Shown here: piece after piece, positions 9,728-59,949 of the stretch | Numbering within the stretch: the stretch's first letter is position 1 | Layout: each line of letters begins with the position of its first letter | NCBI GenBank assembly: GCA_022661535.1 | Contig: JAKULF010000004.1 | Span: 3,038,001 to 3,102,000, forward strand | Length of the DNA stretch: 64,000 nucleotides | Direction of reading: 5' to 3' | Source of the DNA: Eutypa lata | Lineage: Eukaryota > Ascomycota > Sordariomycetes > Xylariales > Diatrypaceae | Translations under genes and position numbers: made by a program | Notes under the pieces: model-generated | Told to the model about the DNA's origin: nothing | What the model saw: the letters and a program-made list of their open reading frames with translations, nothing else | Database searches by the model: none

Positions 9728-10935
9728 AAAGATATTTTTCAAATTATATTATATATTAACGATTTATAAAAACTTTAAAAACTTTAAAAGTTAATAATTT
9801 AAAAACAATTATTTTAATTAAATAATATTATTTATATTTAAATTTTTTAAACTTTTATATTTTATTTTTTAATATTAAATAATAATTAAATTATTATAAA
9901 ATTAACGATTTATTTATTATTTATTTACGTATATAATTATTATTAATAAATTATTATTTATTTATATATATTTTTATTAAAAAATCGAAAATATTATTAC
10001 TTTATAAATATATATTTATAAAATATAATAAAATATATGCGTTAATTTTTAATAATTATTAAAAAATATTAAATTTATTATAATTTTTAATTTTAAACGT
10101 AAAAAATAATAATATAAATATAACGACTTAATTATTATTTAATATTAAAAAATAAAATATAAAAGTTTAAAAAATTTAAAATATAAATAATATTACTTTT
10201 TTAATTTACTTTTTAATAAAATAAAATAATATAATATATAAAACTTTTTAAAACTTTATTAATTAAATAAATTTTAATTATATTATATTATATTATATTA
10301 TATTATAAAAATTAATATAATAAATAAAATATTTAAAAAATTATAAATTTAAAAAGTTTTATTTTTACTTTAATTAATTCTTTTATTAAATATAACGTAA
10401 TTATTATTATATATAATATAATTTAATTTATATTTATTAAAAATATAAAAAATAATAAAAACGTATATATTTATATATTATTTATTTTATTTTATATTAT
10501 TTTATTTATTAAAAAAAGAAAAGAAAATTTAACCGTTATATTAATTATTATTAAAAAGCTTTATTTGTTATTTAATAATTATAAGCGCTTTAATTACGTT
10601 AATCGTTTAAAATTATTATTTTAATCGCTTTAAATTCTTTTTAATAATAATTATAATTATTATCGTATACATTATATAAGTTAAGTAAATTTGTTATTAA
10701 AGCCATATAAAGCTAATATAAGCTATTATAATAATTTTATTATTAAGTATTATTACTTATAGCATTTATAGTACTTATAGCATTACTTATAGCATCACTT
10801 ATAGTACCACTTATAGCACCTTGTACTGCTATATGAAATCGCTATTATAGCTACAATACCATATAAAGGCTCGATATTATGTGGCGGTATAAAGTGCTAC
10901 AAGTAGTAGTGCTGTAAGTAATATTATAAGTAATA
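9728..10935. repeat. AT-rich block, RIP-mutated repeat of unknown origin
   Basis: About 1.2 kb of almost pure A+T with near absence of CpA and TpG; the cytosines left are mostly in CpG or CpT. This is what saturating RIP leaves behind. The right end (about 10,741-10,935) holds short tandem variants of ACTTATAGCA. No terminal repeats were found, so the original element, possibly a retrotransposon, cannot be named. Confidence 0.75.
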
Positions 10936-10971
10936 TTCGATATTAAAAGTATAAATACTTTGCCTCATCAC

Positions 10972-12030
10972 TCAGGCCTCTCTCCGTAAGGTGGCTACGC
11001 CACCGCAGCTGCGGCGGTGCAGCTGCGCTGCGGCTAGTGGTTCCGTACCAGATGTACCCACTAAACCCAATACGGAAAGATGACCCACAAAAACCAAAAG
11101 CTGACGGAGAGAGGCCTGATCTCATTTGGTGATTTTCGGGGCTTGCCGTGTCAAAATGGCCCATTTTGTATGGAACAAAAAAATAACACTACTTTTTCAT
11201 TTCTTAATAACAAATTAAATAAAATACGTATAACTTAATAAAATATGCGGTTAAATCCGAAATTAAATACCATTTACGAGTATATATATATATATTTATA
11301 TAACCTTAAGAAAAGTTTTTATCCCTAGATAAAAGGTAAATTTTCTTGCCGTGTCCAACATTTTTCTCCGGACGCCCTCCAAGCCAGCATGCTACCATTA
11401 CCATTCTGATCAAAAAAATCATAACTCTCCGGGCTTCTCCCATACAATCTTACCCTTGGACGACCCTTTGCGAAATGATTAAAGTAGTGGTGGTGGTATG
11501 CTGGCCAGGAGGGCGTTCCGACACTTATTCGTCCGAAGAGCCACTAGGCTAATATGCCACCACCACCACTTTAATCAAAAAAATCATGATGCTCCGGGCT
11601 TCTCCCATACAGTGTTACCCTTGGACGGCCCATTGCGAAATGATTAAGGTGGTGGTGGTGGCATGCTGGCTTAGAGAGCGTCCCGACACCGTTCTGCAGG
11701 GTGGCTTCTGCAGGGTGGCTTCTGCAGGGTGGTTTCTGCAGGGTAATTGATTAAATTAACTTCGTACGGCTTTAATTTAACTTCGATTAAATTGCAAAAA
11801 TTCCTATATATATATTAGCTTTTAATCCTTTTATAATAAAAGTTTCGAACTTATTAAGTTTGATTTCATTTTATTACGAATTGTTTTGTAAAATGAATAT
11901 AGATTGTGGACATTTCTAGACCCGAAAATCACCAAATGAGCTCAGGCCGCCGTAGCTCAAGTCCTATCCCTGCCCTCTGATTGGTCGGAATTTTAGTGGG
12001 ATATTGGTACTTAGAGCTACGGCGGACTGA
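10972..12030. mobile_element. Nested terminal-inverted-repeat elements with a hairpin at each end
   Basis: A central 820-bp unit has perfect 20-bp TIRs, CTCATTTGGTGATTTTCGGG at 11121-11140 and its complement at 11921-11940. On its left sits a 148-bp element with perfect 16-bp inverted ends (10972-10987 and 11104-11119); on its right a second hairpin (11942-11957 and 12015-12030, one mismatch). The outer hairpins both begin TCAGGCC, so the match between the two ends extends outside the 20-bp TIR. Inside lie two related copies of a small element (about 11,369-11,520 and 11,533-11,690) whose inverted ends carry CCACCACCACCACTTTAATC. No transposase frame survives. Confidence 0.65.
11692..11744. 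repeat. 14-bp tandem repeat
   Basis: TTCTGCAGGGTGGC occurs three times in full (the third with a terminal T) and once truncated to 11 bp, head to tail. Confidence 0.85.
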
Positions 12031-18691: not shown

Positions 18692-20616
18692 AGTCAACTA
18701 CCCCCTCAACGCACACCCCCCTCAACGCCCAATGCTTTATAACGCATTACGCTTAATATTAACCTTATCTTTAATATAAATTTATACCGCCATTTCGCGT
18801 TTTCTCGAAATAAAAAATATATTTTTTTATTTTTTATTTTTTAACGGTTTTAATAATATAACTTTTATATAATAACATTACGTTATAAAAACAATTAATA
18901 AAATTATAAATAAAAAATTTATTTTAATAACTTTTAAAATATATTAAATTAAATATATTTATATACGACGTTAAATTAAAAATATTTAAATTAAATAAAA
19001 GAAATTTTAAAAATAATAAAAAGTATTTAATTAAATAAAAATTATTTTAATTAAATAAATCGTTATTTAAAAAATCTTAAAATATATATCGTTATATATT
19101 TAATTTTATAACTTTATTTAACGCTTTTTAATTAACGTTAAAAGCTTATAAATATTAAAAAAAATAAAAATAAAACGTTTTTTTAAATGTTATTTTAAAA
19201 TATAAATTATTAAAAATATTATTATTAATTATAAACGTTTAAATAATACTTTTTTAAAAATTTATAAAATATTATTTAATTAATTAATTTATTTTAAAAT
19301 TAAAAAAATTATTAAAAAAAATAAAATTAATATAAACGAAATCGAAATAAAAAAAATATAAAAAAAAACGTTTTTATATTTAATAAAGCTTTTAAAAAAA
19401 TTATTTTAATAAAAAATATTTATAAATATAAATAAATTTCGATTATAATATATATTATTATTAATAATCGTATTTTTTTATTTTTAATTATATTTAACGA
19501 TATAAATATTTAATAATAATAATTTAACGAAAAAGATTATAAATATAATAATTAATATTTTATTATATTATTAAACGAATAAATTAATATTAAAATTAAA
19601 TTAAAATAATTAAAAAAAATATTTATTTTATATATTAAATTAATTTATTTTAATTAATAATAACTTTTTATTTTAAATAATTATAATAATTATATATTTA
19701 AAAAATTTATAACTTTTTATTTTTTTAATAAAATTTACGTATTATATATTTTTTTTATAATTTATATATATAATAAATTATTTAATATTAAAATGTTTTT
19801 ATATTTTAAACGTCGTTTTTATTTTTAATTTAAAAAAAAGTATTATAAACGAATTTCGAAAATTATTAATAAAAATAATTTTCTTTAAGCGTTTAATTAA
19901 ATATAACATAATATATTTTCGATTTTAATTTATATTAAAACGAATTTTAAAACATTTAAAATATAATTTATTTCGAAAAAAATCGCTTTAAATAATCGAT
20001 TTATTAAAGAAAGCTTTAAGCGAAGTTATATATTAATTATAAAATTAAATTTTATTTTAATAATATTTAATTTTATTAATTTAATAATTAATTTAACTTT
20101 AAAAATACTTAAATTATTAATAAAAATTAATAATTTTAAAAAAGAAATTAATTAAATTTAACTTTATTTTCGAAAAAATAATCGTTTAATTATTTTTTAA
20201 AAAACTTAATAAATTATTTAACGAAATAATTTTTAATTATATAATAAATAAACGATAAAATAAATAATTATTTATAACTTTTAAAAAAATAAAATTAAAA
20301 AAAAAATAATATTAAATTTAAATTTAAAGTTTATTCGATTAAAGAATATAAAGAAAATATTAAAAAATATAAAAAGATTTATATTAAAATTTATCCGCGT
20401 TATTTAATTAAAAAAAGTTAAAATCGAAAAGAAAAAAGAAAATAAATAATATAATAAAAATAATAATTATATTATAATTCGTTTTATAAAAGTTTAAAGT
20501 TAATTATTTAATTATTCGATCTTTTATAATAAATTAAAGCTTAAAGGTATAGTTGTAGTAGTCGTTAAAAATGTATTGGGCGTTGAGGGGGGTGTGCGTT
20601 GAGGGGGTGGTTGACT
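18692..20616. mobile_element. Tc1/mariner-type (Fot1/pogo-like) DNA transposon, RIP-inactivated
   Basis: A 1,925-bp element bounded by 42-bp TIRs (18692-18733 and 20575-20616) that differ at one position; both begin AGTCAAC and contain CCCTCAACGC twice. A TA dinucleotide lies directly outside each end (18690-18691 and 20617-20618), the target-site duplication of the Tc1/mariner superfamily. Length, TA duplication and TIR style fit Fot1/pogo elements, which encode a DDE transposase of about 540 residues. Between the TIRs the sequence is almost wholly A and T with CpA/TpG stripped, so no transposase frame remains. The family assignment rests on the ends only. Confidence 0.8.
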
Positions 20617-21504: not shown

Positions 21505-23144
21505 ATGTCCTCATCAGAGAGCTTGCCAAGTGTAAAGAGCGTCCAGTCAGATTTCAGTACTAAAGAAGTTACAGGTGATGATACCCAATCGACACCTCTT
21601 GATGGAGGATACGGCTGGGTATGCGTGGTAGCCCAATTCTTTCTGAATGCCTTCACTTGGGGTGTAGCAGCCGTATGAATCCCAGTATTGCTCTTTTCTC
21701 CCCCGCTGTCCCGAATGCTAATCACTTATATTTAGTCGTACAGCGTTTACTTAGCCTACTACCTGTCTCACAATCTGTTTCCCGAAGCCAGACCTCTCGA
21801 CTATGCCTTCATAGGAGGGTTCAACTACTCCTTCGCGTTGTTGGTAGCGCCAGCAGCAACCTTGATGTCCCGGCTTTATGGCGTTCATGCACCGATGTTT
21901 CTCGGGGTAGTCTTGCTCCCTATTGGTCTTATAGCAGCCTCGTTCGCTACCAAGGTTTGGCACTTGTACCTCTCACAGGGCCTCTGTGCCGGAACCGGTA
22001 TAGGTAAGCTTTAAGAACGTTTCGTTCCCTTCTCTATCATCCGCGAGGAGCCTCTTGTCCTAAATTATACTATTCTTTTCCCCTTGAATCGAGGTTATCC
22101 ACTATCGTTAGCAACTCTTTCTAGAATAGTATTCGCTGACACTTGAACTTGATCTAGGATTGATCTGCATCCCATCAATCGCCATCCTCCCCCAGTGGTT
22201 CTCCAAGAAGATTAGCCTCGCCAACGGCATTTGCTCCGCAGGAGCTGGGATCGGTGGCCTTATCATCTGCTTCTCGACGAAAGGCATGCTTGATAGCCTA
22301 GGACTCGCCTGGTCTCTCAGGATAACCGCAGCCGTGGCGTTCTTCGTCAACCTCACCGCGATGCTGCTAATTCGATCGCGCGACAATCAAATCCTGCTCC
22401 CGGACCAGGGCATATTCAATTTCCACCTCCTCCGCTCTTATCATGTCCTGCTTCTCCTGGGCTGGAGCTTCGTCATAATGTTCGGATTCATCACTCTGAT
22501 GTTCTCTTTGTCGAACTACGCGTCGACAATTGGGAGTTCGGAGCGAGACGCAGCCATGGTACCGGCTATGTTGAACCTAGGCGCAGCCATTGGACGGCCT
22601 GTGATAGGATTTGCCAGCGATTATTATGGCCGTGTTGAAGTGGCCGGAATACTGACGTTCACATGTGGAGTACTGGTGTTCGTGCTCTGGATCCCGACAA
22701 CCACGTATGGCATGCTGTTGCTATTTGCGGTTGTCGGTGGAACTATCCTTGGAATCTTCTGGGCGGTAAGGTATCCTGCAGCTACCGTGATACATGCCAC
22801 TTCTAATGTCTTCTTTGTAGGTCATTTGCCCACTAGCGACGGAGGTTGTTGGTCTCAAGAAACTCCCGGCTTTTCTTCCAATTGCATGGCTATCGGTAGT
22901 CATCCCGAGCGCAGGTAAGTCGAGAACGATATAGAATACATGATAAATACTAACCATCCGCTCCGTCCTAGCCGCTGAGGTGATAGCATTGTCATTGAGA
23001 CGTCCCGAGCTTGGGGCACGAGGCTATCTTTACACGCAGATTTTCGCAGGGACATCATACATAGTGGCAAGCTTATTCCTGTTAGAACTGTGGAGGTCGC
23101 GGCGAAAGGCTAGTTTATCCTCAGGCTCTATGTTGCAATTGTGA
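21505..23144 (+). CDS. MFS transporter, monocarboxylate (MCT-like) family
   Basis: Five exons, 21505-21672, 21736-22003, 22158-22765, 22821-22914 and 22972-23144, joined by GT-AG introns of 54-154 nt with phases that agree, give 436 residues. After a polar N-terminus comes DGGYGWVCVVAQF, the signature at the start of helix 1 in fungal monocarboxylate porter homologues, then about twelve hydrophobic segments, including GFNYSFALLVAPAATLMSRL and the cytoplasmic-loop stretch IGRPVIGFASDYYGRVE between helices 8 and 9. It should be an integral membrane proton-coupled or facilitated transporter of small organic acids or related solutes; the substrate is not predictable. It stands alone, between a dead transposon and ankyrin debris. 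Confidence 0.88.
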
Positions 23145-42579: not shown

Positions 42580-43431
42580 CGGGCAAAGGGCGATATGACT
42601 TCTAAGGGTTGTCGTTAAGAGGATAGTGAAGAATGGACCAGAATGATGTCAGGTTGAATCATTGTTTAAAGAGACTACCCCAAGCTATACGTCGTATAAG
42701 CCATATCTTGCAACTGACGATGAAGAGAGAAACCAGAAACCACATGAAAGCATAATAGAGAATGTGTTCGATAGGCCATTACCCATCTACGAAGTTTCGA
42801 TAATGCTTAGAAACGCGATCATATACCATTAGTAATACCATATTTCAACTGCCTTTCAATTTCGACATGGTGACGAAACAGCCCTGTTCACCGACCAGCA
42901 TCTATTGGGCCATACCACCACACACCCAGGTATCAGCTAACCATCAGCTAACAATTGCATATTTATCTACATCCGATCTTACATCGCGTGACGTCCGTCA
43001 ACTAGATGACATCCAATCGCAGACCTTCTTGGCTGTGCTGTTACCACTTTACCCCGCAACAAAGGGCCTGCGTAAGATCGTCAACTCCAAGCCGAAAAGC
43101 ATTTTGCGGGCGAGCCTTCCGACGACAGTGAAAGCGACGGAGAGTCCAATCTGGATGAAACGGGGGACGAATAGGCCGAAGGCGCGAGGTTGCTTAGGCA
43201 CTTCCGCACCTCGTCCGCACCTCGTTCGTGAGGCTCGTATCTCCGATCCGAGGGGGAAGGGGACTTTCGCCTATTATAAGAGATGGCATATATTCGCGTA
43301 TTTAGAAGTCAGGTAAAGCGAAGCAGGCAGAACCAGACAAGAACCTGAAAACCTACTGCCTACCTCCTTACCTACATTCGTGACGAGAACCAATATTAGA
43401 AAGAAAAGAAAATACAACTGTATCGCCAACC
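42580..43431. other. Intergenic, upstream of the NmrA-like gene
   Basis: A 149-codon ORF at 42867-43316 has no recognisable domain and no intron signals; it is not supported as a gene. The final 100 bp are the probable leader of the next gene. Confidence 0.4.
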
Positions 43432-44536
43432 ATGCTAGTACTAATCGCAGGCATAACCGGGATGTGCGGGCAGCCCCTAGCGCAGGCAGCTCTAGCGAAA
43501 GGACATCGAGTCCGCGGGCTGGGGCGGAACCCCGATAAGCTGGCGCTGGACCTGTCGGCGCGGCTCGAGGGGTTCGCCAAGATGAAGGATATCTACGACA
43601 TCGCGGCGCTAGATCGCGCGGTTCAGGGAGTCGACGCCGTGATCTGTGCCTATAATCCGTCGCCGGAGCTCATTGTCGAAGGCCAGATTTTGCTGCTTCG
43701 TGCGGCGGAGCGTGCTGGCGTTAAGGTGAGTGTTGTGCGTGCATACGTGCGCGGTGTTGAAAAACAATACGCTTTAAATTGGGGTTTGGTTGGGCTGATA
43801 TCAGGAAACGTCCAGATCTTCCATGCAGCCTCGTGGAATATGGACTGGACTCGGAACCGCCTCGGAGACCACGAGACATACGACTGTTATATTGCCTTTT
43901 GCAACCGTGAGTATCCCTTAGCTGCGTGCTCAAGATTTTCGCTCCACGGGTAGTATCTCTACTACTCTAGAGCCATTCACTTACTTAACTTCTCTACTCA
44001 CTTACCTACCCCTTTCCCAACCTTCCCCCTTTCTTTTCATAAAAAGTTGATCACCTACATATTAACACTCTATTAAACCCCACCCCGCAAGACGCCCGCA
44101 TCAGCTCCCCCATCAACCCCCTCTACGCCTTCACAGGCACGATCCTCGAATGGGAACTCCAGCAGACCTACCGGCCCAAGACGCTCGACGGCCCGGGGCG
44201 CATCGCGCGGTACTTCGGGACCGGGCGGGGCCGGCTCCCGTGGACGAGCGCCGACGACCTGGCCGCGTACACCATCGAGGCCATCTCCTCCCCGACCTCC
44301 TCCGATGGCGGGTTTTACCGCGTGCACAGCTTCCGGGCGTCGGTCCTCGAGCTGGCCGACGCGTACGAGAAGGTGCGCGGCGGCGGCGTGGAGATCAAGC
44401 GGGCGTGTCTCGGGTCTGCGGAAGAGCTGGAAGCGATGCTGCGGCGCGCCCGCAAGGAAGTCCCGCCATATCGACATGCGGAGTATGTTGGGCTCGCGTA
44501 TGCTAAGTATATGCTTGATGGTACGTGGGATGATGG

Positions 44537-52100: not shown

Positions 52101-52823
52101 CTCTCGACGCCCCCGACGGTTACGAAGGAACCTTAATTGTAACAATTTAAAGTCCCGATATGAGACCCACATCGGCCGATCCGGAAGACGGTGGGTATCT
52201 AAATTTAGCACCGGGACGAACTTTTGATACCTACCAAGCGGTAAAGGGTGCACCACGCAATACAAACTCACCGATTCTTACGTCGCGCTCAGAAGCTAAT
52301 GGAGGTTCTAAGACTACACGCGGCAATTCCTCCTTTTCGTCCGCTGCCAACCTGCTGAACTTCCGACGTAGCCAGCGGCCTCCTTGCATACTTGGTAACG
52401 AAGTCAGGGGGGGCCTTGGCGGCCTATCCGAGCTTTCGCCATCTCGGGCAGGTCAGGGGCCTCCTAGCGTTCCCGCACGGCATTACGTAGTTTGTGTCCA
52501 ACGTACAAATTAGGCATGTAAAAGAATGATGCTGGATTTGTTTTCCACCTTTCTTTTTCTTCTTCCCCAGTGCAATAATCCTCTTTTTCTTTCCTTTTAT
52601 ACGCAACTATTTAAGGGCTGATTGGCTAGGATACGTGGTACAACGATGCACATAATGGACCCATCGCCCCGGAAAAAACGTACAACTAGAAACAGCAGGT
52701 TCCTATTGCGGCTGATTTTCGCTACGAGGTATATAAGCAGCCCAAGAGACGGGTTTTCGACTTCTAAGTCTTACTTCCTACACAATTCGTCAATTACGCA
52801 TCGTGCCCCATCCATCCGAGAAA
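49151..52823. other. Gene-poor region of 3.7 kb
   Basis: The left 900 bp are pyrimidine-rich and probably include the 3' untranslated part of the GPI gene. ORFs at 49,363-49,947 and 52,160-52,513 lack motifs. An ACTTCT hexamer is repeated at about 51,904-51,930. The last 200 bp lead into the cutinase gene. Confidence 0.4.
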
Positions 52824-53850
52824 ATGAAGTCGGTACAGACACTCGGGTTCGCCGCCCTCGCCTCATTCCTACCTGCAGTATCGGCACAACTCAGCCCCGT
52901 ACCAGGCGTCGATGATGTCGCCGACGAGTGGGCCAGCATTCTGAACGGCGAGGAGGGGGCACCCGAGCCCGATCTCGCCGTCATCTTTGCCCGGGGCACT
53001 TTCGATTCAGGGTAGGCTAGCACTATCCCCTATTGCAAGTATGTCCACCATCACTAATCTAGTTCTTCTACCCACGCAGGAATGTCGGGCTTTGGGTGGG
53101 ACCGTACTGGCGCGAAGCCCTACGCGCGAAGTTTCCCTCGCTGGCGTTTCAGGGCGTGAGCACCGACGACTATTCCGCCGACATGGCGGGGTACATCGAA
53201 GAGGGCGGGTCGGACAGCTGCGCCGAAGGCCTCGCGAGAGACGTGCAGCAGTTTGCGTCTCTTCGCCCCGACACGAAACTGGTCGTATCTGGATGGAGGT
53301 GAGTTTTTGGACCTCGTGGGATCTGGCTACATAGTTAGATATCTAGGGATAGGGAGTGGGTTCTCACAATCACTGTAGCCAGGGCGCTCTCTGCGCTCGT
53401 AAGAGCCTCGGGTACCTCGATGACGACGCACGCAGCCGCGTCGCAGCACTCGTGCTTTTTGGCGATCCCTCCGGCATTTGGACGGACACGGTTTCGTTCC
53501 CGGAGCTCCCGAGCAATACGCAGGAGTTGGTGTACTGCGAGCTCACGACGCCCGATGCCCTCTGCACCGATCCCGCAGAGCTACTCACGGATCCCTTCGA
53601 GTTCGCCGACCGCCTGGAGGAGATGTGGGACGAGTTCGATGACGTGAGGTTGAATGACGCGCAGAGGGACGCCAGGGACTCCATCATCGCGCAGCTTCCG
53701 CTGGAGGTCGCCGACCACTTCTCCACGCTGCTCGATGATTTCAAGAACCTCCGGTTCAGGAGGTGGATGTTGCTCCCGCAGCACTTTTGGTACGGTATTG
53801 ATGAGACGGTGTCGCAAGCGGCGGATGATGTTTTCGATGCGTTTGGTTAG
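52824..53850 (+). CDS. Secreted cutinase-family serine esterase with an insertion
   Basis: Exons 52824-53011, 53080-53298 and 53379-53850 give 292 residues. A signal peptide, MKSVQTLGFAALASFLPAVSA, leads to the cutinase fold: AVIFARGTFDSGNVG, LVVSGWSQGALCARKSL with nucleophile Ser136, and LFGDPSG. The acid appears to be Asp195 in CELTTPDALC, the conserved Cys pair region. In ordinary cutinases the His follows about 13 residues later; here about 60 acidic, helix-like residues come first, and the best His candidate is His271 in PQHFWYG. Intron 2 interrupts the Ser136 codon (AG, then C). The ATG at 52824 gives the signal peptide directly. Cutinases hydrolyse plant cutin or other polyesters outside the cell; the substrate here is uncertain because of the insertion. 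Confidence 0.88.
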
Positions 53851-54152
53851 TTAGTGTGTATGCGGGAAGTTAAAACGCTTTAAGATATGTACCTATATGG
53901 ATATACCATGAAAGTCATTCTTTTTCCACGCCATTATATTTTATACGTTAAAATTTATAATACATCACATCTATGATTAGATAGCATGCTTCTTATTTAT
54001 TCGCATCTGCTGGTTGGAGGGTACTTCTATATGTTATTGTGTGAATGAGGGGAACAAGTAGGTAGATATAAAACATGATAATCGAATAGCCCATACCAAC
54101 TTACTAAATACACTATCAGCCATATCTAGGTGATCTTCTATTTTTGTCCGTA
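53851..54152. other. Intergenic
   Basis: AT-rich spacer between the cutinase and the UstYa relic. Nothing is seen in it. Confidence 0.5.
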
Positions 54153-55143
54153 TCATCCATGGTGCCCCATCCTTGGGAGATGCGAATTCAACTTCCCTGG
54201 AAGATGCTTGTCAATCCAATCTCTTGAAGATTGCTACCGCAGTGTCAGTACAACATCGATGGTAATCTCATTTTCTGCAGGACTTACGTAATTCTTGCAT
54301 TGGTGACGCCCTCCATATCCGTTCACACGGTCCACGTGGGACTCTCCCTCTACCATCTTAGCGGCACCCTCTATTGGCATATCACCAGCACACATGATTC
54401 CTTGTCGGATGTAGTCGAAACAATGGTTCACATGTTTCATATCTACTGCGAACTTTTCTTCGTCTCGACCGCTTTCGAATTCCTGTTGGCCCAAAAAACA
54501 TCCCGTATGATCATCTGACAACAAATCAGCACCTGCAGTCCCAGTTTCTTCTGTTCGCTAGCCAAGGCGCGCTTACCAGATAGTGTAGTTGGTGATACAT
54601 GCGGATACCAAAAACTTCAACATCGGGCGGGCTGTGTTCGTCCCGAATTCCCGGAGGGAGTTCATATTATGAAGGGTTCTGAATCGCGACAAACCCCATT
54701 CCAGCTGCAAAGTTTAGTAGGCGCCAGCGTTTCGGGTTTTGTATCTACTCACGTCCGAGTAAATCCATCCACATGGCATTGTTCTCGGAGTCGGGTCACT
54801 GTTAAATTGGGAGTAGTTTTGAAAAATGTTCGTTTCCGTAGGAACTGCGGAGGTTAGATCGGTACAAAGCTACGCAGAGGTGTTTCGAATGAAGAAATTA
54901 CTAACTATATGGAATTGGGGATTTTGTTTTGCCCAGGCTTCCTCCCAGTATTCCCTGGAATCCGATGATGACGACCGAAAGCAACAGGAGAGTAAATATA
55001 ATTACGAAAGATCTCGGGCGCCCCCAATGTCATTTGTTCTTCGAGGCGTTCTGTTCGAACGCCGCGTCCGTATCAGCACCCAGGAAAATACCGCTTTCCT
55101 CAGCCGACTCATGGTGATCCAGTGGAATATATTTGGTAACCAT
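54153..55143 (-). pseudogene. UstYa-family (DUF3328) oxidase pseudogene
   Basis: UstYa-type proteins are type II membrane oxidases that cyclise fungal RiPP peptides. On the minus strand I see the family in order: a short cytosolic start with TKYIPL, a membrane segment SFVIIFTLLLLSVVIIGF, then ETNIFQNYSQFNSDP, NNAMWMDLLGPGMGFVAI, ELPPGI, MYHQLHYL (first HxxHC motif, Cys replaced by Tyr), QMIIRDVFWA, and HVNHCFDYIRQGIMC (second motif, intact), GYGGRHQCKNY and a C-terminal exon with DWIDKHLPG. Exon-like blocks are 55143-54906, 54844-54753, 54704-54577, 54532-54288 and 54233-54153, most with good GT-AG borders. Lesions: TGA at 55032-55030, TAA at 54669-54667, a frame change within 54,790-54,800 and another within about 54,450-54,500. 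It cannot encode an intact protein. It is divergent from the precursor relic. Confidence 0.85.
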
Positions 55144-55680
55144 TGCCTTCTGATTAAGCTAGATGAAGTTATTGCGTTGGACGGGATCCTCAGAGAGAAA
55201 ATTTACCTTGGATGCCATGAAAGCAAAAAGTTTCCTCAAGTTTCCGTAATTTAAGACAGGCAAGAGCTAGAGTGAAGGGGCACAAATGATAAAGGGCAAC
55301 AGAACATCATTGCAAGAATACCTGTAAGCGCCTGGTGGAATTATCTACACTATCCTTATTTGGTTATAAGGCATTGATTATTGAAAGTAATGACTTATAG
55401 GCCCAGACTATCATATTTGATGTTTTGTTGCAGCCCATCAGAAATATTGGCTAGCTGAATCTTGCCGCTTCATTTTCAAATAGACTGCCGTTAACTGCTA
55501 TGATCCATCTGTCCCCTTAGTGATTACGTAGGTGCCAGGTTCTAAAGCAGATACTATTTTCCTACTCCACTTAACCTAACCATCCTGCTATCGTGCCATA
55601 TGAGAGTTTTTAGATACATAGTGCGATAGAAAGACCCCCGTTTTAGCACCTATAGGTGGAAGGAATGACTAGTCCGGATA
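55144..55680. other. Spacer between the divergent UstYa and precursor relics
   Basis: No coding signal is seen. It may hold the former shared promoter and, for the precursor, the missing signal-peptide exon, which I could not find. Confidence 0.4.
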
Positions 55681-56097
55681 AAGATACCGTTGAAGTCCGG
55701 GCCGTTGGAGTCTTGGCTCCCTATCTCCTGTGCCGCAAGCTATTACTCGGGGTTGTGGGGCAGCGGGATTGCGGGACTTCGGGGCTGATCGGCCAAGCGT
55801 GACGAGGAGGCTTTCAAGACTGCTAGTCGTGACGGTGAGGCTTTCAAGGTTGCTCGTAGAGATGACGAGGCTACGGAGCAAGTCGACTCGCCCGCCTATT
55901 ACTTCTATTTCAGCAAGCGTGACGGGGAAACCTCCGAAGTTGCTCGTCGGGAGGAAGAGAGCACTGAGTAGGTTGATTCACCTGCCTACTACTTTTACTT
56001 CAGTAAGCGTGGGGAGGATGCCCCCGAGATTATTCGTCGGGAGGAAGATAGTGCTGAGCAGGCGGACGGGCCCGCCTGCTACTTCTATTTTAGCTAG
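55681..56097 (+). pseudogene. RiPP precursor relic with Kex2-flanked repeats (dikaritin type)
   Basis: In one plus-strand frame the sequence reads three cores, YYFYFS at 55897-55914, YYFYFS at 55987-56004 and CYFYFS at 56077-56094, exactly 90 nt apart. Each follows an acidic spacer ending in a Pro-Ala pair (DSPA or DGPA); the first two are followed by Lys-Arg and the third by a stop at 56095-56097. The spacers carry further dibasic Arg-Arg pairs. This is the plan of secreted precursors such as UstA, PhomA and AprA, in which Kex2 frees repeated cores that UstYa enzymes then cyclise. In-frame TGA (55786-55788) and TAG (55969-55971) break it; a shorter 33-nt duplication (RDEEAFK / RDGEAFK) begins the array. 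The frame stays coding-like back to 55,681 but no start or signal peptide is visible. Confidence 0.75.
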
Positions 56098-56828
56098 GAG
56101 GTGTTGCTATTCAGGATAAAAACCATGACTACGGACGTCCTGTTATTTGTTCGTAGCTTAGACAGTAATCGAAATATCGGGGTGGGGATGCGCATGGAGC
56201 TTGTTGAGGAACTTCATCATTTGTCAATCTTAGTCCTTTGATAGACTTAGTATAATTAGTACCTTGGCTTTAAATTATGAGAAGGTCGAGCTTGGCGTGG
56301 AGTGAGGTTGAATAGTAGATCCGATGATAAATGGAAGTATAAGGATGACGACCATGTGTTATTGCATTTAGTCCTCATATCCGCACCCATATTTCGCATA
56401 TTCCACCTTGGTCAAATTATACTACCCCTGATTAGGTAAGCATCTACAACCTTACTCAGCAGAGTCTCCTGAGCATCTTCCGGGGACTCCTTTCCTATAT
56501 GAATGCTACAACGCCACAAACACACCTCCTTACCTTCCTATTCTAGAAAGCCATCTTCTATCTATCAGTACTTATAGGCAGACTACTTAAAATTTATAGT
56601 ATGTTAAAATTCATTAGTAGTTATCCCATACAGGAATCCATCTAATCCCGAGACCGCTGCTGGATAGCTGCTTAGCCTGCGCATGGTGGGCCACCCAGAC
56701 CAGGTCACTGGGAGATACAGCTGTGACAGGCTTTAGAGGAGGAAATGGTCTCCAAGTGATGATAACCCTTGCTTGATTCGGGGGGAAATCTTTCCTCGAC
56801 CCTTGTTGATTCGTGTAGCCCTCTCTCC
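56098..56828. other. Intergenic, downstream of the precursor relic
   Basis: AT-rich with no coding signal that I can support. Confidence 0.4.
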
Positions 56829-57511: not shown

Positions 57512-57988
57512 AATTTGGCTATATCCACCGGTATAAAAAGATATTTATACCGGTATTTAAACTGCATTTGGACGATACGGACCATTTTTAGGACCTGCCA
57601 CTACACTAGTTACATTAGTCATACCTAGCACCTTTAAATCTACCAAGTTAATAGTTATTACATTTGCCAGCTTGTTACCTTTAAGTTATCACCTAATAGC
57701 ATCGGCGCGAAGTGCGGTTAAGGTTAAGGTTAATTAGTTAAGGTTAAGGTTAAGTGTTAACTTAAGGTTAAAGTTAAGCCCCGGAGGGTTTAAGGGGGCG
57801 GTGCAAACCCTTTTATTTAGGTATATTTTTTGTTGTATTATAAATGGTGGTGGTGATGTTAAGTGATGAAATAAATGTATGTGCTTATGTAAGTAAGCAG
57901 TAGGTAATAAGTGATGGTATTAGATTTGTCCAAATGCAATTTAAATACAGTGCAAATATCTTTTTATACCGGTGGATATAGTCAAATT
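57512..57988. mobile_element. TIR element of about 480 bp with GGTTAA repeats inside
   Basis: Long imperfect inverted ends, 57512-57573 and 57928-57988, share CTATATCCACCGGTATAAAA followed by AGATATTT, and end in GCATTTGGAC and its complement. The interior, at about 57,716-57,780, has about eight GGTTAA or near-GGTTAA units plus a GC-rich stretch. No ORF. It is probably a MITE or deleted DNA transposon; no clear target-site duplication is seen. Confidence 0.7.
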
Positions 57989-58617: not shown

Positions 58618-59949
58618 ATGGCTTCTTCTTCCGCTTCGCTGCAGCGCATTCGTACGCCATTGCAGCGTGTATTGACATCATCTATCAACGCCACCCGAGC
58701 ATACGCTACCATCCCAACAAACCCACCGGAATCGTCAAGTAAAGCCAACAGCAGCAGCAGCACAGCGACAACGACAACAACAAAAGCCCGCCGACCTACA
58801 TACTTCAAAGACACGACGATCGCCTCGCTTGATGAATTTGTTCAAGGAGGAGGGGGCTCGTCCACGGCCGCCGCCGCATCCACCCTAGCAGCGAACGAAG
58901 CCTACGAACTCCGGACCGTGGAGGTCGGGCCGGCGTCAAACCGGCGCACCATCACGCGGCTACCCGAGTGGCTGAAGACGCCGATACCGGCGGGAAACAA
59001 CAACTATAAGAAGATCAAGGCGGACTTGCGGGGGCTAGGCCTGCACACAGTGTGCGAAGAGGCCCGCTGCCCCAACATTAGCGAGTGCTGGGGGGGCGGC
59101 GACCGGAGCGCCGCGACCGCCACCATCATGCTTATGGGGGACACGTGCACGCGCGGGTGCCGCTTCTGCAGCGTCAAGACGAGCCGGGCCCCGCCGCCTC
59201 TCGACCCGCACGAGCCCGAGAACACCGCCGAGGCCCTCGCGCGCTGGGGGCTCGGCTACGTCGTCATCACCACCGTGGACCGCGACGACGTGCTCGACGG
59301 CGGCGCCCGCCACTTCGCGGAGACGATCCGGCGCGCCAAGGCGAAGAAGCCGGGCCTGCTCATCGAGGCCCTGACGGGGGATTTCCGCGGCGACCTCGAC
59401 AGCGTCCGCATCGTGGCCGAGAGCGGCCTCGACGTCTTCGCGCACAACGTCGAGACGGTCGAGGCGTTGACCCCGTACGTGCGCGACCGCCGCGCCACGT
59501 TCCGGCAGAGCCTGCGCGTGCTCGAGCAGGCGAAGGCCGTCCGCGGCGCCGAGGGCATCGTCACCAAGACGAGCCTCATGCTGGGCCTGGGCGAGCAGGA
59601 GCACGAGATCGAGGACGCGCTGCGGGAGCTGCGCAAGGTCGGCGTCGACGTCGTCACCTTCGGCCAGTACATGCGCCCGACCAAGCGCCACCTCAAGGTC
59701 GAGAAGTACGTCACGCCCGACGAGTTCGAGATGTGGCGCCGCCGCGCCCTCGACATGGGCTTCCTGTACGTCGCCAGCGGCCCGCTCGTCCGCAGCAGCT
59801 ACAAGGCCGGCGAGGCCTTCATCGAGAACGTACTCCGGAAGCGCGCCGGCGAGAACCGGAGCGCTTCGGACGTGGGCGTTGGCGTTGAGGAGAAGCTCAA
59901 GGTCGCGGCTGCGATGGAGGCTACTGCTATGAAGAGCGAGGGGGCATAG
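58618..59949 (+). CDS. Lipoyl synthase, mitochondrial
   Basis: An intronless gene of 443 residues. A radical SAM enzyme that inserts two sulfurs into the octanoyl chain on lipoyl-carrier proteins in the mitochondrial matrix. The N-terminus ([20 protein letters not shown]) is a presequence, followed by a Ser/Thr-rich linker. The auxiliary 4Fe-4S cluster is bound by [12 protein letters not shown] (Cys146, 151, 157) and the SAM cluster by CTRGCRFC (Cys177, 181, 184). The C-terminal RSSYKAGE supplies the Ser that coordinates the auxiliary cluster. [27 protein letters not shown] and FAHNVETV are textbook. The ATG at 58618 is preferred over an in-frame GTG six bases upstream. A GC-rich region with strong third-position bias covers the catalytic part. 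It is the orthologue of yeast LIP5 and bacterial LipA. Confidence 0.97.

What the first reader, a model, noticed from the sequence alone, without database searches (positions are those of the whole stretch)
54153..56097. Decayed fungal RiPP locus: UstYa pseudogene divergent from a repeated precursor
Two components that together define dikaritin-type RiPP pathways sit side by side: a DUF3328/UstYa relic with the HxxHC motif and a precursor-like array of Tyr/Phe cores flanked by dibasic sites. Each alone could be chance; together, divergent and about 540 bp apart, they strongly suggest a lost peptide pathway. The core YYFYFS differs from the cores I know for ustiloxin, phomopsin and asperipin, so living relatives may carry an undescribed product.
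Basis: partly seen in the sequence, partly recalled or inferred. Interest (0 to 1): 0.88.

Follow-up and report, generated by a model that had tools for sequence, protein, structure and literature searches.

The report
Broken fungal peptide pathway, intact relative
A fungus carries, side by side, the broken remains of a UstYa-family enzyme gene and of a precursor gene that repeats one short aromatic peptide; intact versions of both are recorded in a related Hypoxylon fungus, where they likely lie on one contig and are predicted to make a cyclic peptide not found in the papers searched.

Summary
Window 54156-55143 (-) is a full-length UstYa (PF11807) gene, colinear with residues 1-252 of a Hypoxylon texense protein, but broken by in-frame stops and a frame shift and lacking the cysteine of its first HxxHC motif. 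Window 55789-56097 (+) is a repeat precursor: three 90-nt units with the core SPAYYFYFS between RR and KR sites, also broken by stops. The decisive evidence is an intact 102-aa precursor, P0009, in Hypoxylon sp. FL1150: hydrophobic start, three SPAYYFYFS cores, KR/RR sites. Its contig is 226,139 bases long, the length also given for the contig of that strain's UstYa orthologue P0004, so the living pair is probably linked. Neither relic has a second copy in this 54.5-Mb genome, only distant UstYa paralogues. The genome also has five open repeat-precursor frames beside UstYa genes, with other cores. The kind is known (dikaritin / ust-RiPS). The core string is in none of 5.39 million papers searched (supplements not searched). 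Cyclisation, final product and activity are inferred.

The parts
54156..55143 (-). UstYa (DUF3328) pseudogene, full length, colinear with residues 1-252 of P0001; one stop in each of two conserved stretches, one frame shift
   Evidence: tblastn of P0001-P0008; PF11807 48.7 bits for one piece; per-piece identity to P0001 187 of 244 compared residues
54237..54557 (-). Open piece of the UstYa relic with the second HxxHC motif intact (about 54420-54434)
54580..54594 (-). Position of the first HxxHC motif; its cysteine is lost in the relic, present in P0001-P0004
   Evidence: alignment
54901..55029 (-). Hydrophobic stretch near the N-terminus, the membrane helix expected of UstYa proteins (expectation recalled; no predictor run)
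   Evidence: translation; aligned to P0001-P0004
55144..55788 (.). Spacer between the two divergent relics, 645 bp; a weak in-frame remnant of the precursor's N-terminus may lie at about 55753-55797
   Evidence: the remnant is only the edge of a second, lower-scoring alignment and is uncertain
55789..56097 (+). Precursor pseudogene: Kex2-type repeat array (30-nt half units at 55798, 55828, 55918, 56008; three full 90-nt units from 55828) with a stop immediately upstream and one inside
   Evidence: tblastn with P0009 E 4.6e-30
55888..55914 (+). Core copy 1, SPAYYFYFS
55978..56004 (+). Core copy 2, SPAYYFYFS, differs from copy 1 only at synonymous sites
56068..56094 (+). Core copy 3, degraded (2 of 9 residues changed), at the extreme C-terminal end as in P0009

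Best explanation
This is most likely a decayed dikaritin-type (UstYa) RiPP pathway: a broken full-length UstYa gene stands divergent from a broken precursor gene that repeats the core SPAYYFYFS between RR and KR sites, and the intact pair in Hypoxylon sp. FL1150, likely linked on one contig, is predicted to make a side-chain-cyclised aromatic peptide. Inferred working of the intact pathway: the precursor enters the secretory route by its signal peptide; Kex2 cuts at KR and RR and releases three core-bearing peptides; carboxypeptidase trimming leaves ...SPAYYFYFS (the last copy already ends there); the UstYa enzyme then oxidatively cross-links Tyr side chains, as the single DUF3328 protein AprY is reported to do for asperipin-2a. 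In the window's strain this pathway is lost: both genes carry disabling changes, and no second copy was found in the assembly. Shown here: the two relics, their homology to intact proteins, core conservation and lack of a second copy. Inferred: linkage of the intact pair, Kex2 and Kex1 processing, cyclisation, product. Untested: expression, product structure, activity.
For: PF11807 hit at 48.7 bits. Colinear homology with residues 1-252 of P0001 and with three more Hypoxylon UstYa proteins; one relic piece groups with the Hypoxylon and Cadophora proteins apart from 21 own-genome UstYa rows at 99/97 support. Intact precursor P0009 with three SPAYYFYFS cores, E 7.2e-21 in 5.77 billion proteins and 4.6e-30 back to the window; P0009 and P0004 lie on contigs of the same stated length, 226,139. 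Core identity relic to P0009 25 of 27, spacer 25 of 50, dibasic sites kept 4 of 4. Codon differences between copies 1 and 2 in SPAYYFYFSK: 6 synonymous, 0 nonsynonymous; random expectation 5e-5 (two thirds transitions) to 3.7e-4 (transitions only). Five of 20 fetched own-genome UstYa stretches hold an open repeat-precursor frame, and a divergent UstYa neighbour is present in four of the five. No second copy of either relic.
Against: No tyrosinase, methyltransferase or peptidase was found among the ORFs scanned (22 of the 28 larger window ORFs and 10 flanking pieces), and no transporter nearer than an MFS ORF 31 kb away, though asperipin-type clusters are small. The relic's signal peptide is not confidently recognisable. 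The first precursor search found nothing at E <= 10 among 76 candidates; its length range (109-346 aa) excluded the 102-aa relative. A precursor was found in only one of the four Hypoxylon fungi that have the UstYa orthologue. 15 of the 20 fetched UstYa stretches show no precursor by the scan. Linkage of P0004 and P0009 was not read from DNA. No cyclised product is shown.
Confidence: 0.88

Rival explanations
1. The array is a decayed Kex2-processed repeat protein that made a linear signalling peptide or pheromone, and the UstYa relic next to it is a coincidental neighbour.
For: PMC7329392 (passages): only 22% of 7878 fungal repeat proteins have a DUF3328 gene nearby, so most may not be cyclised. 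No other tailoring gene was found among the flanking pieces scanned.
Against: Both genes are broken together here and both exist intact in Hypoxylon sp. FL1150, on contigs of equal stated length. The core is Tyr-rich. PMC7329392 says repeat proteins annotated as mating factors or pheromones have no DUF3328 neighbour, with three exceptions.
Confidence: 0.08
2. The genes are not dead: sequencing errors, introns or a truncated single-core precursor leave a working pathway in this strain.
For: One long UstYa piece and two of three cores are well kept; relic-to-P0001 identity (187 of 244) is only a little below that between the intact P0001 and P0002 (202 of 250).
Against: Two stops and a frame shift sit inside otherwise contiguous conserved UstYa stretches, and the precursor frame is stopped before and inside the array, while the neighbouring lipoyl synthase frame is open over 448 aa. 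The first HxxHC cysteine is also lost.
Confidence: 0.04
3. The repeat is a chance or low-complexity tandem repeat that only looks like a precursor.
For: A tandem repeat by itself is weak evidence; the array pieces hit no Pfam family above cut-off.
Against: Intact homologue P0009; synonymous-only core differences between copies 1 and 2; 0 hits of the repeat scan in 574,251 shuffled bases and, in the window outside 54,000-56,400, one Arg-rich false hit.
Confidence: 0.01

Closest known systems
Asperipin-2a pathway (Aspergillus flavus; core FYYTGY, one DUF3328 protein AprY; passages of PMC6514808, and PMC7329392)
   Same: Secreted repeat precursor with Kex2 sites, a single UstYa-family gene beside it, short Tyr-rich core
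   Different: Core SPAYYFYFS rather than FYYTGY; no reductase or transporter found next to the relic; RR and KR sites alternate; both genes broken here
Ustiloxin and phomopsin pathways (dikaritins; PMC6514808 and PMC7329392 passages)
   Same: UstYa-family oxidase plus repeated precursor
   Different: YAIG/YVIG and YVIP cores; two and five DUF3328 genes, a tyrosinase and further tailoring genes, none of which was seen beside the relic
Ustiloxin-like RiPP clusters reported in Hypoxylaceae (PMC8403587, passages)
   Same: Same fungal family as the closest UstYa relatives; RiPP potential noted in Hypomontagnella species, H. rubiginosum and H. pulicicidum
   Different: Found there by similarity to known precursors (PhomA, OphMA, GigA templates); the paper says it cannot tell whether they cover the actual diversity. 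Its main text has 0 occurrences of UstY or DUF3328

Membership tests
Dikaritin / ust-RiPS (UstYa-type RiPP) | UstYa/DUF3328 (PF11807) protein gene in the locus | tested here: met
   48.7 bits against a cut-off of 25; orthologues P0001-P0004 carry precomputed PF11807
Dikaritin / ust-RiPS (UstYa-type RiPP) | Two HxxHC motifs in the enzyme | tested here: not met
   In the relic only the second is intact; the first lacks its cysteine. Both are present in P0001-P0004, so family assignment rests on the intact orthologues, and the window copy is filed as their pseudogene, not as a working member
Dikaritin / ust-RiPS (UstYa-type RiPP) | Precursor with repeated cores separated by Kex2 (KR/RR) sites | tested here: met
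   three cores; 4 of 4 dibasic sites of the aligned P0009 stretch kept
Dikaritin / ust-RiPS (UstYa-type RiPP) | Signal peptide on the precursor | tested here: inconclusive
   P0009 has a hydrophobic N-terminus (mean Kyte-Doolittle 1.46 over residues 5-21), no predictor run; in the relic the N-terminus is not confidently recognisable
Dikaritin / ust-RiPS (UstYa-type RiPP) | Enzyme and precursor genes close together | tested here: met
   646 bp apart, divergent, in the window; equal contig length 226,139 for P0004 and P0009
Dikaritin / ust-RiPS (UstYa-type RiPP) | Tyrosinase and methyltransferase genes (Ding et al. definition as given in PMC12048977) | tested here: not met
   None among 10 flanking ORF pieces and 22 of the 28 larger window ORFs; short or intron-split exons could be missed. 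Not required in the later definition described in the same passage, and not among the four asperipin-2a genes listed
Dikaritin / ust-RiPS (UstYa-type RiPP) | Side-chain cyclised peptide product made by the UstYa protein | not testable with these tools
   Needs metabolomics or enzymology in the intact strain

The most novel reading that the evidence does not exclude
A new RiPP family in Hypoxylon whose core, SPAYYFYFS, is mostly aromatic and is stitched by a single UstYa oxidase into a compact multiply cross-linked Tyr/Phe peptide, kept in some species and caught here soon after its loss in another.
Probability: 0.5. Interest if true: 0.6.

Novelty: new member of a known kind. Interest (0 to 1): 0.47.

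Why it matters
It turns a guess from raw sequence into a named, testable pathway: an intact enzyme (P0004) and precursor (P0009) in Hypoxylon sp. FL1150 with a core not found in the papers searched. A core whose only bulky residues are Tyr and Phe would test what a single UstYa oxidase can cross-link. The genome also shows loss of one such pathway beside five loci that look open, so turnover of these peptides can be studied in one group of fungi.

Tried and rejected

No second copy of either relic in the own genome; the second match is the array itself. The best-scoring own-genome paralogues of the UstYa piece are 42-43% identical, so a close paralogue does not stand in.

RIP as the cause of decay: over 54001-56000 TA/AT is 0.82 and (CA+TG)/(AC+GT) is 1.16, outside the usual RIP range (thresholds recalled), so ordinary decay is more likely.

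A wider cluster: Pfam scans of 10 flanking ORF pieces gave nothing above cut-off. Of the 28 larger non-overlapping ORFs, 22 were scanned; six were not. The NmrA-like ORF at 43384-43950 and the MFS ORF at 22130-22915 are 10 and 31 kb away and not taken as parts.

Signal peptide of the relic: a short match at 55341-55373 (E 0.93) and an in-frame stretch at about 55753 are both too weak to claim.

Solved structures: no PDB chain matches P0004 at E <= 0.01. No structure prediction was run.

Full report
What was checked. The window is G000:C5:3038001-3102000 of a 54.5-Mb assembly in 29 contigs. The closest relatives of the UstYa relic are Hypoxylon proteins, and Hypoxylon is in the Hypoxylaceae, Xylariales, so a Hypoxylaceae-like fungus is likely but inferred.

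The enzyme relic. The minus-strand piece 54234-54557 hits Pfam PF11807 (UstYa) at 48.7 bits against a cut-off of 25, E 1.1e-12. A search of 5.77 billion proteins with this piece returned 8 proteins at E <= 0.001 among 20 candidates: four Hypoxylon proteins of 250-259 aa (P0001-P0004, 77-89% identical over 50-60% of the query), one metagenome protein (P0005) and three Cadophora proteins (P0006-P0008). tblastn of P0001 back to the window covers its residues 1-252 in order from 55143 to 54156. It is broken: one stop lies in each of two conserved stretches, the frame changes within a third, and the first HxxHC motif lacks its cysteine; the second is intact. Compared piece by piece, the relic is identical to P0001 at 187 of 244 residues, to P0002 at 185 of 244, to P0003 at 166 of 236 and to P0004 at 162 of 240, against 202 of 250 between the intact P0001 and P0002; the loss therefore looks fairly recent, which is an inference. 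For a tree, 26 own-genome matches in the fetched stretches were found and 21 kept (five shorter than 40 residues were dropped); with P0001-P0004, P0006-P0008 and one relic piece of 53 residues this made 29 short rows (P0005 was left out). The relic falls with the Hypoxylon and Cadophora proteins at 99/97 support, apart from the 21 own-genome rows. 14 of 26 inner branches are weak, and the four Hypoxylon rows do not form one group, because Cadophora and the relic lie among them.

The precursor relic. Tandem Repeats Finder and the repeat tool find three 90-nt units and an extra 30-nt half unit at 55798-56097. In frame, each core is preceded by an RR site; the first two are followed by KR, and the third ends the frame. 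A stop lies just before the array and another inside it; the one ATG in that frame from 55501 to 55798 is cut off by stops. Between copies 1 and 2 the ten codons SPAYYFYFSK differ at six codons, all synonymous; the other twenty codons differ at 6 synonymous and 7 nonsynonymous codons (a stop counted among the latter). Six random substitutions in the core would all be synonymous in 5e-5 (two thirds transitions) or 3.7e-4 (all transitions) of trials. Copy 3 has two changed core residues, so its comparisons with copies 1 and 2 do include nonsynonymous changes (3 codons each, one of them the terminal stop). The core was thus probably kept by selection before the gene died.

The intact relative. 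The first precursor search found none at E <= 10 among 76 candidates, in a length range of 109-346 aa. A second search with a 102-residue query found 1 protein among 3 candidates: P0009, 102 aa, Hypoxylon sp. FL1150, locus GGR53DRAFT_495495, E 7.2e-21. P0009 has a hydrophobic N-terminus and three SPAYYFYFS cores; the first two are followed by KR, and RR stands ahead of the second and third. The last core ends the protein, as in the relic. It matches the window at 55852-56094 with E 4.6e-30. Core residues are identical at 25 of 27 positions, spacer residues at 25 of 50, dibasic sites at 4 of 4. Its contig is given as 226,139 bases, the same as for P0004, the UstYa orthologue of the same strain, locus 495490. 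That the two are linked follows from these labels; their DNA could not be read here.

Controls. Neither relic has a second copy in the own genome. The genome has 37 UstYa matches (a lower bound). I fetched 20 stretches that cover 34 of them; left out were the window's own match and two on C24. A scan for dibasic-flanked repeats gave open precursor frames in 5 of the 20 stretches: L016 (DYNTLG/DYNRLG), L017 (YSIIVYSIG), L018 (WNAAAWSNFIKSYFPEE), L024 (DAGLFTSLDGVWASYGYDEKK) and L035 (DSDDVWLW); their starts, signal peptides and introns were not checked. Extra hits in L024 and L035 are other frames of the same arrays. 15 stretches gave no hit. The window's array passes the scan on its half-unit spacer repeat, because a stop splits its cores; another frame of the array and one Arg-rich frame at 59363-59560 also score. 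A UstYa domain divergent from the precursor is found in L017, L018, L035 and, for one of three UstYa domains, L024; L016 has both on one strand. Synonymous changes dominate in the five cores too (L016 50 to 25, L017 7 to 0, L018 23 to 2, L024 163 to 0, L035 59 to 0), but the motif patterns I used fix most residues, so that count leans that way. The same scan gave 0 hits in 574,251 shuffled bases and, in the window outside 54,000-56,400, only the Arg-rich false hit.

What is known. PMC7329392 (passages) reports 7878 Kex2-processed repeat proteins in fungi, 22% with DUF3328 genes nearby, and a single DUF3328 gene in the asperipin-2a pathway. PMC6514808 (passages) gives the asperipin-2a core FYYTGY, a bicyclic structure with ether links from Tyr side chains, and AprY as essential. 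PMC12048977 (passages) describes two HXXHC motifs as a reliable mark of RiPP-related DUF3328 proteins. PMC12186524 (passages) cites a 2025 paper whose title calls a DUF3328 enzyme copper-dependent; that paper is not held. PMC8403587 (passages) found ustiloxin-like RiPP clusters in some Hypoxylaceae and says it cannot tell whether they cover the actual diversity. Searches pairing Hypoxylon or Xylariales with RiPP, UstYa, KEX2, DUF3328, dikaritin or asperipin (listings only, of which those above were opened) showed no title on this core. The strings YYFYFS, PAYYFYF and AYYFYFS are in 0 of 5.39 million papers; supplementary files were not searched.

Verdict. A real, decayed member of a known kind, with a core that the searches did not find described and an intact counterpart in a living relative. 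Cyclisation, product and activity are inferred from the family.

Noticed in passing
L016:3491-3841, L017:2847-3206, L018:6635-6964, L024:5075-5746, L035:2269-2718: Five open Kex2-type repeat-precursor frames beside UstYa genes elsewhere in the same genome, with cores DYNTLG/DYNRLG, YSIIVYSIG, WNAAAWSNFIKSYFPEE, DAGLFTSLDGVWASYGYDEKK and DSDDVWLW. Strings from the last four of these were in 0 papers; the first was not searched.
   Followed up: partly
window 9800-11000 and 18900-20300: Two AT-rich blocks full of short A/T tandem repeats (14% GC over 10001-11000, 7% over 19001-20000), in a window otherwise at about 36-69% GC per kb.
   Followed up: no
window 57716-57778: About ten imperfect copies of a GGTTAA hexamer, resembling a telomere repeat variant, 3.1 Mb into a 6.5-Mb contig.
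   Followed up: no
window 52737-53850: Cutinase-like gene in three open pieces next to the relic; of the two pieces scanned, the last hits PF01083 at 24.9 bits, just under the cut-off of 25.9, and the first has no such hit.
   Followed up: no
P0005-P0008: UstYa relatives of the same clade in Cadophora (P0006-P0008) and in a metagenome protein family seen on 31 contigs (P0005); no precursor for them turned up.
   Followed up: no
L020 and L027: Two of the own-genome UstYa genes closest to the relic (36-43% identical) show no repeat precursor by the scan within the fetched stretches.
   Followed up: no
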